The position numbers and the translations under genes are program-made. 64,000 bases of DNA from Caldicellulosiruptor diazotrophicus (GTDB lineage Bacteria > Bacillota > Thermoanaerobacteria > Caldicellulosiruptorales > Caldicellulosiruptoraceae). Location of the stretch: assembly GCF_017347585.1 (NCBI RefSeq), contig NZ_AP024480.1:2271501-2335500 (forward strand). The letters are read 5' to 3'. The notes under the pieces are model-generated. The model was not told the DNA's origin. It ran no database searches and saw only the letters and a program-made list of their open reading frames with translations. Positions 2,707 to 10,767 of the stretch are shown here, in pieces (position 1 is the stretch's first letter; every line of letters begins with the position of its first letter).

Positions 2707-2923
2707 AAATTTTTCTATATTTTTAATTTCTTTTTCTAATATTATCTTCTCCAATTTATAATACTTTAAGTTTGCAAATCTTTTCCTCAGAACTCTTTTT
2801 GCAAATTATGTAACTTGCATAAATATTTTATCAAAATTTTAACATTATTTACGTTGCTTTTTTATGGTATATTTAAAATATCATCTTAATTTCTAAAATA
2901 CAACTTTAGAGGGGTTATGTAGA

Positions 2924-3286
2924 ATGCAGGTATATGTTGTAAGAAAAATTCCTATACAGGAATTGAAAGAGTTTGGAGGCAGAGTTTTAAATGGTGTGAA
3001 AGAAGGCGTCAAAGAAATCATAAATGATATAGAAAGAACAGCAATAGCTTCAGGTTTGGAAAATGGCATTAAAGGCGGTATTAGTGGCTACAAACAAAAC
3101 AGAGAATTTAATGCTGTAATGAAAAATGGATATACATTAAGAGGAATAGGACAAGCTGGCATGTCTGGAGCTGTAAGTGGTTTTGCAAAAGGAGTAATTA
3201 AATCACCTGGAATTGTCGGATGGATATCAATAGGTTGGTCATTTGGAGAAGGTTTCGTTAGAGGTTGGAGAGAGTATGGAAAATAA
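2924..3286 (+). CDS. Small glycine-rich protein, unknown (bacteriocin-like composition)
   Basis: This 120-aa protein starts at ATG 2924, nine bases after AGAGGGG. I do not recognise the family. The N-terminal third is charged and probably helical. From about residue 47 it becomes rich in glycine with repeated small-xxx-small spacing (GIKGGISGY, then GAVSGFAKG), ending in an amphipathic aromatic tail (GWSFGEGFVRGWREYGK). Such glycine-zipper segments occur in membrane-inserting peptides, including some bacteriocins and holins. There is no clear signal peptide. A Gly-Gly pair at residues 18-19 is preceded by IQELKEF but does not match the double-glycine leader spacing. The downstream membrane-protein gene overlaps its last 11 bases, so the two are translationally coupled. 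A degenerate copy of its C-terminal half lies at 3845-4013, in the same position before the second membrane protein. Confidence 0.6.
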   Translation: MQVYVVRKIPIQELKEFGGRVLNGVKEGVKEIINDIERTAIASGLENGIKGGISGYKQNREFNAVMKNGYTLRGIGQAGMSGAVSGFAKGVIKSPGIVGWISIGWSFGEGFVRGWREYGK

Positions 3287-3824
3287 AAAAAGTTATTTTA
3301 GTTGGATCGTAGCTGGATGCATTACTTCTACACTGCTCGTTTATGCTGTTTACTACTTAAAAGACTCTTCTTACTTTAAAGAAAATCCTTTAAACAGAAT
3401 TATTCAATTGTTGATTGTAGTTGGAATAGTAGTCAGTGCAATAATTGATGCTAAATGTATTGAAAATTCTAACAAAGTACATCTTAGAATTTTATTAAAT
3501 AACTTTCTGTTATTTTTAGTTTTCTTTTTTCTACCCCTAAACATTGGTCTTTTAGTTTTAAAAATAATACCAAGCATAAAAGACTTGGGAGCTTTTATCT
3601 TGCTCGAAATTTTTTTCACATATTCTGTTCTGCGTTCTAATTACTTATATATTCTTAAATTTAAGAATTACAAAAATTATACAAAAATTATTATATTATC
3701 TGCTCTCTTGTTAGGAATTTTCTTGGGAATAATATTCCCTGAAATAGAAGGTATGTATAGATATTTATTAATTTTTGTTTTTGTTACAATACTTTTCGAG
3801 GTATTAAATTTTACATTAAGATAA
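3276..3824 (+). CDS. Multi-spanning membrane protein, copy 1 of a tandem pair
   Basis: This is a 182-aa, very hydrophobic protein with about six predicted transmembrane segments. I placed the start at ATG 3276 (MENKKSYFSW), after GAGGTTGGAG. The longer ORF opening at 3243 has no ribosome binding site, and the paralogue at 4003 starts at the equivalent position. It overlaps the upstream glycine-rich gene by 11 bases. No known domain is recognised. It aligns along its length with the protein at 4003-4554; shared landmarks include NRIIQLLIVVG against NRIAQLFIVVG, and NIGLLVLKII against NIGILLLRII. The arrangement of a small glycine-rich peptide coupled to a membrane protein resembles a bacteriocin with its immunity protein, but that role is inference. 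Confidence 0.65.
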   Translation: MENKKSYFSWIVAGCITSTLLVYAVYYLKDSSYFKENPLNRIIQLLIVVGIVVSAIIDAKCIENSNKVHLRILLNNFLLFLVFFFLPLNIGLLVLKIIPSIKDLGAFILLEIFFTYSVLRSNYLYILKFKNYKNYTKIIILSALLLGIFLGIIFPEIEGMYRYLLIFVFVTILFEVLNFTLR

Positions 3825-3844
3825 ATTTTTTTTGATTTAATATA

Positions 3845-4013
3845 ATGAGAAATGGATATATGTTTAAGGGGAGTAGAACAAGATAGTTTGTCCAGTGCTG
3901 CAAGTGCTTTTGCAAAAGAGATAATTAAAATATTTGAATATGGAGAATATTTTACAACTGGTATATCTTTTGTAAAAGGATTTGTCCGAGGTTGGAATGA
4001 ATATGGCAAATAA
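3845..4013 (+). pseudogene. Degenerate C-terminal fragment of a second glycine-rich gene
   Basis: The DNA from ATG 3845 matches the second half of the gene at 2924-3286. The opening MRNGY corresponds to MKNGY, and the end VKGFVRGWNEYGK matches GEGFVRGWREYGK. One extra base near 3860 shifts the frame: the opening frame stops at TAG after about 13 codons, while the frame beginning LRGVEQ runs to TAA 4011. The 5' half, with the first 60 or so codons, is absent. The fragment still overlaps the start of the second membrane-protein gene exactly as in the intact pair. This shows a tandem duplication of the two-gene unit followed by decay of one component. Confidence 0.7.
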
Positions 4014-4554
4014 AACCAAACATCATTTTTTGAATTGGGCACTCAGTGGAATTATTTTATCACTCTTAGTATTGATTTTTTTTTACCTCAATAGAAACTT
4101 ACCAATCTTAAAAGGAAATGTAGCAAATAGAATTGCACAACTTTTTATAGTAGTTGGAGTAGTAGTTGATAGCATATTAGATTTGTCAGTAGAACAAAAT
4201 CTAAATGGTTACTCAAAGAAAATTTTAATAAAACCTGCGGTATTTTTTATCACTTTTTCTTGTGTGTTTAATATTGGTATACTTCTGCTTAGGATAATAT
4301 CTTCACTAAAACTTCTTGTAATGTTAATAATATTTGAATTTTTGTTTTCACTTTTTACTATTCGCTTTTTTCATTTAGAAAAAGTTAAATTTTATAAATA
4401 TAAGAATTTTAGTAAAATAGTGGTCTTCTTTATACTTGCGGCAATAATACTCTTGGTAATATTTGCTCCATCTTTAGAAGGTATTGGTTTGTATATTGCA
4501 GTATGTATTCTAGGTATTGTTTTCTTTGAAATACTAAACTTGTTATTAAAATAA
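4003..4554 (+). CDS. Multi-spanning membrane protein, copy 2 of the tandem pair
   Basis: This is a 183-aa paralogue of the protein at 3276-3824, again with about six hydrophobic segments and no recognised domain. The start chosen is ATG 4003 (MANKTKHHF), seven bases after GAGGTTGGA. ATG 3997 and TTG 3982 are in-frame alternatives. Unlike its glycine-rich neighbour, which has decayed, this copy remains open throughout. That suggests it keeps a selected function on its own, as an orphan immunity protein might; this is inference. It overlaps the pseudogene by 11 bases. Confidence 0.65.
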   Translation: MANKTKHHFLNWALSGIILSLLVLIFFYLNRNLPILKGNVANRIAQLFIVVGVVVDSILDLSVEQNLNGYSKKILIKPAVFFITFSCVFNIGILLLRIISSLKLLVMLIIFEFLFSLFTIRFFHLEKVKFYKYKNFSKIVVFFILAAIILLVIFAPSLEGIGLYIAVCILGIVFFEILNLLLK

Positions 4555-4640
4555 AAGAAATTATAGAATAGATTTCAGAATAGTAACTATTTAGTATAAA
4601 GACTATTTTGAAATAATTATAAAGTGCGAGGTAAACGTTA

Positions 4641-5240
4641 ATGAATCTTTACCTTCCTTTAGATACATTTCAAGAAATAAAAATCATAACAGAAAACAAT
4701 ATCATTGAATGTGAGAGAAATAGTGATTTTATTAATATTTCAACTTTCTTAAAAGAAAATGAAGCTTTTATTATTGCTTGTAACGAACAATTAATAATTT
4801 TTGCAACTATTGAAAAACTAAAAAAACTAAAAAAAGAGTTAAAAATAGAAAAAGTAAAAATTGGTTTGGAAACGTTTAAAACTGAAGATGGGTTTTTAAA
4901 ATTATTACATGAAACCCATGTTCTTTTTGGCAATGATAAAAAGTTTGTAATATATATTGAACTAATTAACCCTGTTGATACATGCCCTATTATTATCGAG
5001 ATAAAAAAGAATTCTGAAAAATGTTATTTTTCCTTAGCTAATATTCCACCAGGAGAAAAAACTAATAATTACTTTATAAAATATGCAGAACATATCATTC
5101 TTGACTTTTCTCAACTAGAAAAAGCAATATACGATGTGGAAATAAAATTTATTGATGGCGAAATAATTGGAAAAACAACCTTTAAATGTCAACCTTTAAA
5201 AAAGAGATTGGAGAAATATTTACCTTATAATCCTGTGTAA
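4641..5240 (+). CDS. Hypothetical protein, 199 aa
   Basis: I do not recognise this protein. It starts at ATG 4641 after GAGGT with eight-base spacing. The sequence alternates beta-rich and helical stretches and has a lysine-rich helix at about residues 58-75. It shows no signal peptide, no transmembrane segment and no obvious catalytic motif. It follows the tandem membrane-protein unit on the same strand after an 86-base AT-rich gap and ends just before a strong terminator. It may therefore be the last gene of that small island. Its AT content is at the high end for the window, as in the preceding genes, which is compatible with horizontal acquisition. Confidence 0.55.
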   Translation: MNLYLPLDTFQEIKIITENNIIECERNSDFINISTFLKENEAFIIACNEQLIIFATIEKLKKLKKELKIEKVKIGLETFKTEDGFLKLLHETHVLFGNDKKFVIYIELINPVDTCPIIIEIKKNSEKCYFSLANIPPGEKTNNYFIKYAEHIILDFSQLEKAIYDVEIKFIDGEIIGKTTFKCQPLKKRLEKYLPYNPV

Positions 5241-5250
5241 TAATAAAACT

Positions 5251-5296
5251 AAAAGACCAGCTTTGTTTAAAACAAACAAGCTGGTCTTTATTTTTA
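5251..5296. terminator. Bidirectional rho-independent terminator
   Basis: The stem AAAGACCAGCTT pairs with AAGCTGGTCTTT across a loop of about 15 bases. T-rich tracts follow on both strands. It sits between the convergent ends of the 199-aa gene (plus) and the GH15 gene (minus), so it can serve both. Confidence 0.8.
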
Positions 5297-7352: not shown

Positions 7353-9794
7353 TCATCGCTCAATCAAATCTAACAAATCACAAACCTTTCTAACCTGTCC
7401 TCCATTTAGATTAATCTTATACTCTTTTTCAGGTCTTGCAAAAATGAAGTTGTCTTCTACATCCTTGTCAGCTTCAATTATAAGGCAAATTGCGGGAGTT
7501 TTGGGTTTTATTACAATATAGTCATCTTTTATTTCATATTCAAACTGGCAGGGTTTTAGCTCGAGGTTTATTGGCTTTTCAAATACAAAGTAGTTTTCGT
7601 ATTCCACTCTATCGACAAAAAGGCTTACAAAAACTATGCTTTCCAAAAGTCCTCTGTCTATCTTATCTCCAATTACAGCCGTTTCAACATGTTTGGGTAT
7701 ATATAACCACTCACCCTTCAAAATATTCAAGTTTTCTACTTTTTCAGAAAATGCCTCAACCACACCATTTTCAGGAATTTCAACAGTCAGGTTTTTCTCG
7801 TATAACTTCTGCCCGTCAAAATTCCAGATTGTAATATTGATTTGGCCCTGTTTTGACTCTAGTTCATCGCTTACAACATATACCTTTAGCTTTCCATTCT
7901 CATACTCAACCACTGGCAAAAACTTTGCAAATATCCTTTTTGACTCATAGTAAAGCGCCTTTCTCCTTTTTAGATAGTCAATTGACGACCATGAGATGAC
8001 AGGCCAGCAATCATTCAGCTGCCAGTAAAGTGCTCCTGCTGTCCTGAACTTATTCTTCCTGTAGTGCTCAACCGCAAGCTTTATAGCCTCTTTTTGAACA
8101 AACTGTGACAAATACACAAAAGAGTCAAAGTCTTTTGGTAGACCAATTGAGCCTGCCATATACCTTATAAGCCTTTCTAAACCTTCTTCCTGCTTTTCGT
8201 GCATTCTCAAGGTCTTTGAAAAGATTGTCTGGTCTTTTAGAGGAATATATTTTTTCATTGTGTCAATATGCGCTGCTGCTTGAAAACCAAACTCGCTCAC
8301 AAACCTTGCATTATCGTGTTTGTAGTAAATATAGTCTTTCCAGCCAGCCCAGATATCCCATGTGTGCTTGTCACCAGCAGTGCTGCTATTTGGATGCTCT
8401 CCACCATACGGGCTTGAGATGTGGTACGGTCTTGTTGGGTCAAGCTCTGATAGAATCTGTGGCAAAACCTTCTTGTAAATTCTATTTCCCAAAAATTCTG
8501 GGTCGCCAATGTGCCACCAGTCTCTAAAACCCCAGTTGTTTTCGTTATTTCCACACCAAAGCACTATACACGGATGGTTTCTCAGTCGTTTTATCTGGTA
8601 CTCTGCCTCTTTTTTGAAATTCTCAACGAAAAAGTCAAACTCATCAGGGTAGATTGCGCATGCAAACATGAAATCCTGCCACACCATTATACCATTTTTG
8701 TCACACTCGCTATAGAACCAGTCATACTCATAAATTCCGCCGCCCCAGACTCTGAGCATGTTCATGTTTGCATCTTTTGCCATTTTGATTAAAGCTTTGT
8801 AGTCATCTTCTTTTAGCCTTGGCAGGATGGAATCAGCAGGTATCCAGTTTGCACCCTTTGCAAAAACCTTCTTGCCATTTATTTCAAAGATAAAACTTTC
8901 ACCATATTCATCCTTTTCCTTTATTACTCTTACAGTCCTGAGCCCTGTTGTGACCTTCTTTTCTTGAGCTTCATTCGAACTCTTTGCAGTTATTTTAAAC
9001 TCATACAAAGAGGGCTCCCCATACCCGTTTGGCCACCAAAGTTTTGGGTTTTCTATCTCAATCCTTTCATCAATAAAATACCCCTCTTTTGATTTATAAA
9101 CCTCTGGAAAAATTTTCATAGAAAAGCTACCATCAAATACCCCTATCTCAACTTCGGATGGTTTTTCAAAACAGTTTATCTTTGCAAACACTCTTACAAT
9201 GGCAAGCTCATCTGAGATACTTTCCACTTTTACAAACTCATCTTGAATTTCAAGCCCATTGTGAAGCTCTAAATACACGCTCTTCCAGATTCCTATCTGG
9301 AGAATTCTTGGCCCCCAGTCCCAGCCGTACGAATACTGCGACTTTCTTATCCAGCTTCTTTGCGGATAGCTGTAGCTTGACTGGTAAATGCTTTTGAGCC
9401 TTTCTGCCTCTTTTATTGGTGAAAGAAGGATCACCTTTAAAATGTTTTTCCCTTTTTTAAGTGCAAGACTCACATCAAATTCATACTTCAAAAACATGTT
9501 GTCGGTCTTACCCAAATAATGGTCATTTAAATAAATCTCAGATACCGTATCAATTCCTTCGAATACAAGCTTTTTGACCTGAAAATCGACATTATCAACA
9601 TCAAACTCTTTTACATACTCAAAATCTTTCTCTTCCAGATCATAAAACAAAACCTCGTTTGTAGCATAAAAAGGGTCGGGAAGCTTTCCAAGGTTAATCA
9701 AATCAAGCTGGACACACCCTGGCACGCTTGCCTCGTAGTACTCATTTTGACCAACTTCTCTGAACTTCCATTTTCCGTCAAGATTTATTCTCAC
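7353..9794 (-). CDS. GH2 beta-mannosidase
   Basis: This is an 813-aa GH2 enzyme. The start is placed at GTG 9794, nine bases behind AGGAGG; the open frame continues to 9851 but without a ribosome binding site there. The N-terminal sugar-binding beta domain has the VPGCVQLDL motif seen in beta-mannosidases. It is followed by the immunoglobulin-like domain and the TIM barrel, with AKGANWIPAD, the acid/base glutamate in WCGNNENNW (Glu418) and the nucleophile in SEFGFQA (Glu501). The C-terminus is a further beta domain. With no signal peptide, it should act in the cytosol, removing terminal beta-mannose from imported oligosaccharides. The importer genes lie directly upstream on the same strand, which supports a mannan or glucomannan utilisation role. 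Confidence 0.88.
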   Translation of the reverse strand: MRINLDGKWKFREVGQNEYYEASVPGCVQLDLINLGKLPDPFYATNEVLFYDLEEKDFEYVKEFDVDNVDFQVKKLVFEGIDTVSEIYLNDHYLGKTDNMFLKYEFDVSLALKKGKNILKVILLSPIKEAERLKSIYQSSYSYPQRSWIRKSQYSYGWDWGPRILQIGIWKSVYLELHNGLEIQDEFVKVESISDELAIVRVFAKINCFEKPSEVEIGVFDGSFSMKIFPEVYKSKEGYFIDERIEIENPKLWWPNGYGEPSLYEFKITAKSSNEAQEKKVTTGLRTVRVIKEKDEYGESFIFEINGKKVFAKGANWIPADSILPRLKEDDYKALIKMAKDANMNMLRVWGGGIYEYDWFYSECDKNGIMVWQDFMFACAIYPDEFDFFVENFKKEAEYQIKRLRNHPCIVLWCGNNENNWGFRDWWHIGDPEFLGNRIYKKVLPQILSELDPTRPYHISSPYGGEHPNSSTAGDKHTWDIWAGWKDYIYYKHDNARFVSEFGFQAAAHIDTMKKYIPLKDQTIFSKTLRMHEKQEEGLERLIRYMAGSIGLPKDFDSFVYLSQFVQKEAIKLAVEHYRKNKFRTAGALYWQLNDCWPVISWSSIDYLKRRKALYYESKRIFAKFLPVVEYENGKLKVYVVSDELESKQGQINITIWNFDGQKLYEKNLTVEIPENGVVEAFSEKVENLNILKGEWLYIPKHVETAVIGDKIDRGLLESIVFVSLFVDRVEYENYFVFEKPINLELKPCQFEYEIKDDYIVIKPKTPAICLIIEADKDVEDNFIFARPEKEYKINLNGGQVRKVCDLLDLIER

Positions 9795-9897
9795 AGTTTC
9801 TGCCCTCCTGTGTTTGTTTAGTCTTTTAGAATTTATTATAATACTTCTCACAGCAAGTTTTTCTTTCTTTATTTTCAGTCTTTATCTCATTTTTTAA

Positions 9898-9936
9898 GAA
9901 AAAAATAAAAGGGTAAAAATCTTCATATCACCCTTT
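9898..9936 (-). terminator. Probable weak terminator after the permease genes
   Basis: On the minus strand AAAGGGT, overlapping the permease stop codon, pairs with ACCCTTT across about 15 bases. It is followed by TATTTTTTTC. The stem is only seven pairs, so partial readthrough into the mannosidase gene is likely. Confidence 0.5.
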
Positions 9937-10767
9937 GACAGCGCCTGCAACAAGTCCCTGGATTACTTTTTTGTTGAATATCAGATATACCACAATCACA
10001 GGAAGTATTGCAATTGTGATTGCTGCCATAAGCTGGGTGTATTTTACTGTGTACTGAGAAGTGAAATTTGTAAGACCAACAGGCAAAGTCTTCAAAGCAT
10101 CACTTTTTATCAAAACAAGGGCAAACGAAAACTCGTTCCATGAAGACAAACTGCTTAGAATCACAACTGTTGAAATAATCGGCTTGCAAATGGGAAGAAT
10201 GATCCTAAAAAGAGTTGTAGTGAGTGTCGCTCCATCAATGTACGCAGCTTCTTCAATCTCATGCGGAATATCTTTTATAAAGTTTTCCATCAAAAATATT
10301 GCCATTGGAAGTCCAAGCCCTACATATGGCAAAATCAGCGTTATTCTTTTGTCCAAAAGTCCAAGCACTTTGAACTCAACAAACATCGGAACAAGCAGAG
10401 CATGGATTGGTATTAGCATCCCCGCCAAAAACATTGTGTAAAGAAGATTTCTCCCTGTGAACCTGTATCTTGCAAAGAAGTACCCAACCACGAAGCTAAA
10501 TAAAACAATCAAGATGACAGAGACAACTGTTGTAAATAGGCTGTTGAAAAAGTATATGTGCATCTTTGCAGTTTTGATGGCATTTATATAATTTTCAAAG
10601 GTTGGATGTGCTGGCAGCGCGGCAATGTTTAGTGCAAATTCTCTTTCTGTCTTCAGTGATGAATAAATAAGCCAGACAATTGGGAAAATAGATGAAAGTG
10701 AAAGCAACATCACAAAAGCGTTTATAATCAAAGCTCCTATTCTTGATAGTATCCTTTTGAGCGTCAT
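9928..10767 (-). CDS. Sugar ABC transporter permease, MalG/LacG type
   Basis: This is a 279-aa inner-membrane permease of the CUT1 carbohydrate ABC family, with about six transmembrane segments. The cytoplasmic coupling loop EEAAYIDGATLTTTLFRIILP matches the EAA motif that contacts the ATPase, and the C-terminus has the usual GLVAGAVKG ending. It overlaps the other permease gene by four bases (ATGA), showing translational coupling. With the partner permease and the lipoprotein binding protein it should import an oligosaccharide, probably mannoside-containing given the next gene. No ATPase is encoded in the cluster, so a shared MsmK-type ATPase elsewhere is expected. Confidence 0.92.
   Translation of the reverse strand: MTLKRILSRIGALIINAFVMLLSLSSIFPIVWLIYSSLKTEREFALNIAALPAHPTFENYINAIKTAKMHIYFFNSLFTTVVSVILIVLFSFVVGYFFARYRFTGRNLLYTMFLAGMLIPIHALLVPMFVEFKVLGLLDKRITLILPYVGLGLPMAIFLMENFIKDIPHEIEEAAYIDGATLTTTLFRIILPICKPIISTVVILSSLSSWNEFSFALVLIKSDALKTLPVGLTNFTSQYTVKYTQLMAAITIAILPVIVVYLIFNKKVIQGLVAGAVKG

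What the first reader, a model, noticed from the sequence alone, without database searches (positions are those of the whole stretch)
2924..4554. Tandem duplication of a glycine-rich protein/membrane protein unit with decay of only the glycine-rich copy
The unit (glycine-rich ORF overlapping a 6-TM ORF by 11 bases) is present twice. In copy 2 the glycine-rich part is 5'-truncated and frameshifted, but the overlap and the membrane-protein frame are preserved. Loss of the small protein with retention of the membrane protein is the pattern expected when the latter protects against the former, as in bacteriocin/immunity pairs. No such family is recognised here.
Basis: partly seen in the sequence, partly recalled or inferred. 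Interest (0 to 1): 0.65.

Follow-up and report, generated by a model that had tools for sequence, protein, structure and literature searches.

The report
Swapped toxin-like gene and membrane guardian
Next to a starch gene in a heat-loving bacterium sits a swappable gene cassette that pairs a small glycine-rich protein with a membrane protein, and related cassettes in distant bacteria repeatedly lose the small protein but keep the membrane protein, as expected if the second protects against the first; that role has not been tested.

Summary
The anatomy is confirmed. Gly1 (2924-3286) overlaps a 6-TM gene, TM1 (3276-3824), by 11 bases. A 5'-truncated, frameshifted Gly2 stump (about 3845-4013) overlaps TM2 (4003-4554) by 11 bases. 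TM1 and TM2 share 35% identity, so this is not a recent duplication. A third gene, ORF5 (4641-5240), belongs to the module.

'Duplication, then decay' is better read as cassette displacement. Among five species, about 2950-3990 is 97.5-99.2% identical while pooled flanks are 83-93% (Fisher p 1e-14 to 1e-40). A sister species carries an intact Gly2-like gene plus TM2 at the same site, without TM1.

Distant relatives reveal an unnamed three-gene family (ORF5, Gly, membrane protein) in several bacterial classes and on Ammonifex degensii plasmid pADEG01. In about five separate events Gly was broken while the adjacent membrane gene stayed intact; the reverse was not seen.

Most likely this is a mobile effector/immunity-type pair, with TM2 an orphan immunity gene. 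Toxicity, export and protection are untested. No Pfam, NCBIfam, PHROG or PADLOC family matches, and the export features that define known bacteriocin or polymorphic-toxin classes were not found.

The parts
2924..3286 (+). Gly1: intact 120-aa glycine-rich, cationic (+7), predicted helical protein; proposed effector
   Evidence: ORF and translation; 96-98% identical in G002, G003, G004, G009 and 66% in G007; distant relatives
3276..3824 (+). TM1: 182-aa protein with six hydrophobic segments; proposed cognate immunity protein
3276..3286 (+). 11-base overlap of Gly1 stop and TM1 start
   Evidence: sequence
3845..4013 (+). Gly2 stump: 3' part of a second Gly gene, 5'-truncated with one frameshift; an open 53-codon frame runs 3852-4013
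   Evidence: one stop in G009
4003..4554 (+). TM2: 183-aa paralogue of TM1 (35% identity), six hydrophobic segments; proposed orphan immunity gene
   Evidence: start overlaps the Gly2 stump at 4003-4013
4641..5240 (+). ORF5: 199-aa predicted soluble beta-sandwich protein, third gene of the module
   Evidence: homologues beside Gly genes in G184, genus g274, G121, G277, a second locus of this genome and the Ammonifex plasmid; structure model pLDDT 84
2950..3990 (.). Block exchanged between species: Gly1, TM1 and the Gly2 stump
   Evidence: 97.5-99.2% identity against diverged flanks in nine pairs, Fisher p 3e-14 to 4e-40; low dS
2714..5250 (.). Whole insertion relative to G005 and G010, which lack it between the GlgA-like and GH15-like genes (boundaries approximate)
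   Evidence: blastn of the empty sites

Best explanation
The locus is a small mobile effector/immunity-type module. Gly is a short cationic helical protein proposed to act on membranes. The membrane protein encoded right after it is proposed to be its specific immunity protein. ORF5, a predicted soluble beta-sandwich, is proposed to be a dispensable accessory (chaperone, adaptor or regulator). In this genus, alleles of the Gly-TM pair move between species by recombination in the conserved 5' end of Gly and near the Gly/TM boundary. Here an incoming Gly1-TM1 pair replaced most of a resident Gly2 and left its 3' stump and TM2, which now stands as an orphan immunity gene against Gly2-type effectors. 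Shown: gene anatomy, block transfer, the alternative allele in G007, the conserved three-gene module, the one-way pattern of loss. Inferred: membrane activity, immunity, export and the role of ORF5.
For: Block 2950-3990 is far more alike between species than its flanks. G007 has an intact Gly2-like gene with TM2 and ORF5 over 99% identical to those of G003, and no TM1. ORF5-Gly-membrane protein modules recur in G184, genus g274, G121, G277, a second locus of this genome and on plasmid pADEG01. About five separate events broke Gly and kept the membrane gene, none the reverse. Membrane genes alone are duplicated in tandem in G426 and pADEG01. The membrane partners of different groups are not alignable by profile although the Gly proteins are, as is usual for immunity proteins. 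The site is a variable one; in G011 it holds genes that read like polymorphic toxins. A published precedent exists for orphan immunity genes left by recombination (PMC10539506).
Against: No toxicity or protection test. No signal peptide or adjacent dedicated exporter was recognised. A QELKEFGG stretch in Gly1 loosely resembles a double-glycine leader but is absent from the distant Gly proteins. Enrichment of GxxxG is weak and not family-wide. The purifying pattern in TM2 (dN/dS mostly 0.18-0.30) largely predates loss of Gly2, because TM2 is more diverged than the transferred block, so it does not prove retention after the loss. TM2 is broken in G004. A six-pass neighbour of the glycine-zipper toxin TelE does not protect (PMC10434224).
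Confidence: 0.5

Rival explanations
1. Intracellular toxin-antitoxin or addiction pair: Gly damages the producer's own membrane unless the membrane protein is present; the pair maintains the element or responds to phage. Nothing is exported.
For: No export signal or exporter recognised. Genes overlap and are probably co-translated. The plasmid copy sits among annotated toxin-antitoxin genes.
Against: An addiction model does not by itself predict exchange of alleles between species or a kept TM2 with no partner; no PADLOC match.
Confidence: 0.2
2. The membrane protein is the working part (for example a transporter or a phage-exclusion protein) and Gly is a small helper or regulator that can be lost without harm.
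For: Membrane genes survive loss of Gly and are duplicated alone. ORF5 is lost too while others stay.
Against: The TM1/TM2-type gene was found in no genome of the genus without the cassette and in no other genus of 399 genomes searched. The membrane protein changes between groups (three or six TM segments, not alignable) while Gly and ORF5 are the conserved parts, which is odd for the working part.
Confidence: 0.2
3. Neutral history: an old duplication in which one Gly copy decayed by chance; the Gly2 tail is kept only because the start and ribosome-binding site of TM2 lie in it.
For: The tail overlaps the TM2 start. The asymmetry statistic is modest (five events, one-sided p about 0.03).
Against: The interspecies identity block and the intact alternative allele in G007 are not explained. 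The G121 and G015 stumps are not overlapped by the next gene, yet show the same pattern.
Confidence: 0.1

Closest known systems
Cdz contact-dependent glycine-zipper system of Caulobacter (CdzC, CdzD, CdzI; PMC5380434)
   Same: Small glycine-rich proteins encoded with a small membrane protein; there the membrane protein is the demonstrated immunity protein
   Different: Cdz has two such proteins of 84-86 aa and its own type I secretion genes cdzAB. No such exporter was recognised next to the present locus, and there is an extra beta-sandwich gene
CDI ionophore toxins with CdiI immunity (PMC11630599)
   Same: Helical membrane-acting domains, highly variable small hydrophobic immunity proteins, exchange between strains
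   Different: There the toxin is the C-terminal part of a giant CdiA protein and CdiI are two-helix proteins of 72-100 aa; Gly is a free-standing protein of 105-140 aa
Rhs effectors with orphan immunity genes in Serratia (PMC10539506)
   Same: Cassette exchange by recombination with an orphan immunity gene left downstream
   Different: Large type VI-delivered NADase effectors, soluble immunity proteins
TelE/TipE, T7SSb LXG toxin with glycine zipper (PMC10434224)
   Same: Glycine-zipper membrane toxin of a Firmicute with a six-pass membrane gene next to it
   Different: That six-pass protein does not protect; TipE, without TM segments, does. Gly has no LXG domain match
DUF6941 protein of Anoxybacillus phage A403 (fold of ORF5 only)
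   Same: ORF5 model resembles the predicted fold of this phage protein (TM-score 0.71 by target length; the 134-aa gene product identified by length and Pfam match)
   Different: No sequence similarity; the phage neighbours differ

Membership tests
Double-glycine-leader bacteriocins, including Cdz-like | Conserved double-glycine leader | tested here: not met
   A QELKEFGG stretch in Gly1 and the G007 Gly only; absent from the distant Gly proteins
Double-glycine-leader bacteriocins, including Cdz-like | Adjacent dedicated exporter (C39 ABC or type I) | tested here: not met
   Neighbours in the window are GlgA-, GH15- and GH2-like genes and sugar-type ABC permeases, by reading the ORF list; the rest of the genome was not searched for exporters
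Double-glycine-leader bacteriocins, including Cdz-like | Small membrane protein encoded directly downstream | tested here: met
   In every intact module examined
Double-glycine-leader bacteriocins, including Cdz-like | Glycine zipper (GxxxG repeats) | tested here: inconclusive
   Gly1 8 against 4.1 expected, p=0.03; not enriched in most relatives
Polymorphic toxin systems (CDI, Rhs, LXG) | Large conserved N-terminal delivery domain | tested here: not met
   Gly is 105-140 aa with no Pfam or NCBIfam domain
Polymorphic toxin systems (CDI, Rhs, LXG) | Cassette exchange of effector plus downstream immunity gene, with orphan immunity genes left behind | tested here: met
   Anatomy and exchange only, not function:
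Polymorphic toxin systems (CDI, Rhs, LXG) | Toxicity relieved by the partner | not testable with these tools
   Needs expression experiments
Toxin-antitoxin systems | Match to a known toxin or antitoxin family, or toxicity in the producing cell | tested here: inconclusive
   No family match; toxicity not testable here
Phage holin or phage-borne exclusion gene | Phage family match or phage context | tested here: not met
   No PHROG match of note; no relatives in phage or viral contig searches

The most novel reading that the evidence does not exclude
A previously undescribed family of mobile, polymorphic, membrane-directed effector/immunity modules (ORF5-Gly-membrane protein) spread through several classes of one bacterial phylum and at least one plasmid. 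It would use no recognised export route, have a cytosolic beta-sandwich protein as dedicated partner, and build up orphan immunity genes when new alleles displace old effectors.
Probability: 0.35. Interest if true: 0.75.

Novelty: new variant of a known kind. Interest (0 to 1): 0.6.

Why it matters
If true, it adds an unnamed competition system to thermophilic anaerobes of interest for biomass conversion. It also gives a natural experiment on how orphan immunity genes arise: transferred block, breakpoints, displaced effector stump and surviving membrane gene can all be read in living species, and G007 still holds the displaced type of pair intact, so protection by TM2 can be tested directly.

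Tried and rejected
Rejected as chance or artefact: the G039 hit (L011) lies inside a GNAT gene; the G304 hit lies among GNAT genes; weak A7 hits in G094, G063 and G146 (the G094 one is a ribosomal protein S20-like frame, and the A11 profile also picks up S20 in PDB). Searches that found nothing: genome-contig scans; viral contigs; phage and plasmid tblastn with most members (only chance-level phage hits in 104 and 105). The A11 viral scan could not run. The Gly structure model was too poor to search. PDB matches of ORF5 to PDE-delta and UNC119 have TM-scores of about 0.3-0.45 and are treated as generic beta-sandwich resemblance. The type-3 cluster of G006 (L135) resembles the module in layout, but hhalign does not support homology of its Gly-like protein, so it is not counted. 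Promoter-like matches are no more than shuffles give. A paper search for earlier descriptions found none naming this locus, which is weak evidence because only open papers are held.

Full report
Observation. Gly1 (2924-3286) and TM1 (3276-3824) overlap by 11 bases. The second glycine-rich frame ends at 4013 and overlaps TM2 (start 4003) by 11 bases. TM1 and TM2 are 35% identical (E=3e-28) and each has six hydrophobic segments. The stump matches only the last 50 residues of Gly1 (50%, E=4e-9). A DNA alignment shows its homology starting at about 3845, with one extra base shifting the frame.

Setting. Twelve genomes of the host's genus are held here. The locus lies between a GlgA-like and a GH15-like gene. 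It is present in 8 of 12 genomes and absent from G001, G005, G006 and G010. Against G005 and G010 it is an insertion of about 2.5 kb, from about 2714 to about 5250. In G001 and G006 the same site holds an ATPase-like gene, and in G011 about 16 kb with genes that read like polymorphic toxins, so the site is variable.

Displacement rather than duplication. Between G000, G002, G003, G004 and G009 the stretch 2950-3990 (Gly1, TM1, Gly2 stump) is 97.5-99.2% identical in the nine pairs tested. Pooled flanks are 83.4-93.4% identical (Fisher p from 3e-14 to 4e-40; profile). Synonymous divergence among these five is 0.01-0.08 in Gly1 and TM1, against 0.26-1.2 in the GlgA-like gene. In the pair G000-G004 the similar stretch runs on through TM2. 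G007 carries another allele at the same site: an intact 120-aa Gly whose end (ISFIKGFIRGWNEYGK) matches the stump, followed by TM2 and ORF5 that are over 99% identical to those of G003, and no TM1. The first 70 or so bases of Gly and the region upstream are nearly the same in both alleles; divergence from G007 starts at about 2995. The simplest reading is that a Gly1-TM1 pair came in by recombination at the conserved start of Gly and near the Gly/TM boundary, and left the 3' end of a resident Gly2 with its TM2. The stump itself travels with the block, so the first displacement happened before the latest transfers.

A three-gene family. Profile searches reached other classes. G184 has ORF5 (frameshifted), Gly and a 75-aa membrane protein. 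Five genomes of genus g274 have Gly and a three-segment membrane protein of about 80 aa, with ORF5 where the contig reaches it. G121 and G277 have ORF5, Gly and membrane proteins of 222-230 aa. A second locus of this genome has ORF5, Gly and an 86-aa membrane protein. The Ammonifex degensii KC4 plasmid pADEG01 carries ADEG_RS10975, RS10970, RS10965 and RS10960 in the order ORF5-Gly-TM-TM, all annotated hypothetical. Gly profiles align between most groups at E 4e-8 to 4e-5, and several ORF5 profiles likewise, but the membrane proteins do not. No Pfam, NCBIfam, PHROG or PADLOC model matches the module's proteins above cut-off.

One-way loss. Broken Gly with an intact membrane gene: unit 2 of this genus, G008 Gly1 (frameshift), G011 Gly1 (two stops), G121 unit 2 (a C-terminal tail TFKTGFIRGWQTY before the second membrane gene) and G015 (tail DIYHIGCGFIKGWNNYGY before a 98-aa membrane gene). 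An intact Gly without an intact neighbour was not seen. Counting five separate events, a one-sided sign test gives p about 0.03, which is suggestive only. ORF5, in contrast, is broken beside intact Gly and membrane genes in G009, G184, G277 and the G004 copy of the second locus. G004 shows that the orphan can decay too: TM2 is frameshifted and a transposase-bearing insertion lies at its end. The low dN/dS of TM2 mostly reflects time before Gly2 was lost, so it is not used as proof of retention.

Mechanism. Gly proteins are cationic (+6 to +14), show no signal peptide by inspection, and are predicted helical at low confidence (pLDDT 46). ORF5 is predicted with good confidence as a beta-sandwich (pLDDT 84). 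Among its best fold matches is a protein of phage A403, whose 134-aa candidate gene product matches Pfam DUF6941, without sequence similarity. The reading I favour is a membrane-acting effector, a membrane immunity protein and a soluble accessory protein. Published parallels for parts of this are Cdz (PMC5380434), CDI ionophores (PMC11630599) and Rhs orphan immunity (PMC10539506). A caution: in the TelE system the six-pass neighbour did not protect (PMC10434224). Toxicity, export and protection remain untested.

Verdict. The duplication story is replaced by cassette displacement (about 0.8 by my estimate). An effector/immunity role is the best-supported function (0.5). The family is unnamed, but the way it is proposed to work is of a known kind.

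Noticed in passing
L058:2590-16516 (G011): The same GlgA-GH15 interval holds about 16 kb with genes that read like a VWA/repeat protein with a nuclease-like end, Fic/Doc-like and other conflict-type genes; not checked with family searches.
   Followed up: no
L056:3190-4581 and L057:3087-4478 (G001, G006): The same interval holds a 463-aa ATPase-like gene in place of the cassette.
   Followed up: no
L099:5333-6569 (same genome as the window): A second ORF5-Gly-small membrane protein module; ABC transporter-like genes lie upstream at 8753-10178.
   Followed up: partly
L076:2810-3019, L081:11193-11417, L085:2334-2540 (genus g274): A 68-74-aa protein with a signal-peptide-like start and conserved end CPIEVPGS lies upstream of ORF5.
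   Followed up: no
L135:4621-5680 (G006): A glycine-rich 125-aa frame, an 83-aa membrane frame and a weak ORF5-like match in the order Gly-TM-ORF5; related frames in other genomes of the genus. Homology of the Gly-like protein not supported.
   Followed up: partly
L019 (G004) at the end of TM2 and L017 (G002) between ORF5 and the GH15-like gene: Insertions of about 1.1 and 1.4 kb that encode transposase-like proteins.
   Followed up: partly
window 5252-5289: A terminator-like inverted repeat (AAAGACCAGC...GCTGGTCTTT) that is also seen at the sites without the cassette in G005 and G010 (sequence).
   Followed up: no
L140:35864-36822 (Anoxybacillus phage A403): A DUF6941 protein next to a coiled-coil protein with a C-terminal hydrophobic segment, just before the integrase gene.
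   Followed up: partly
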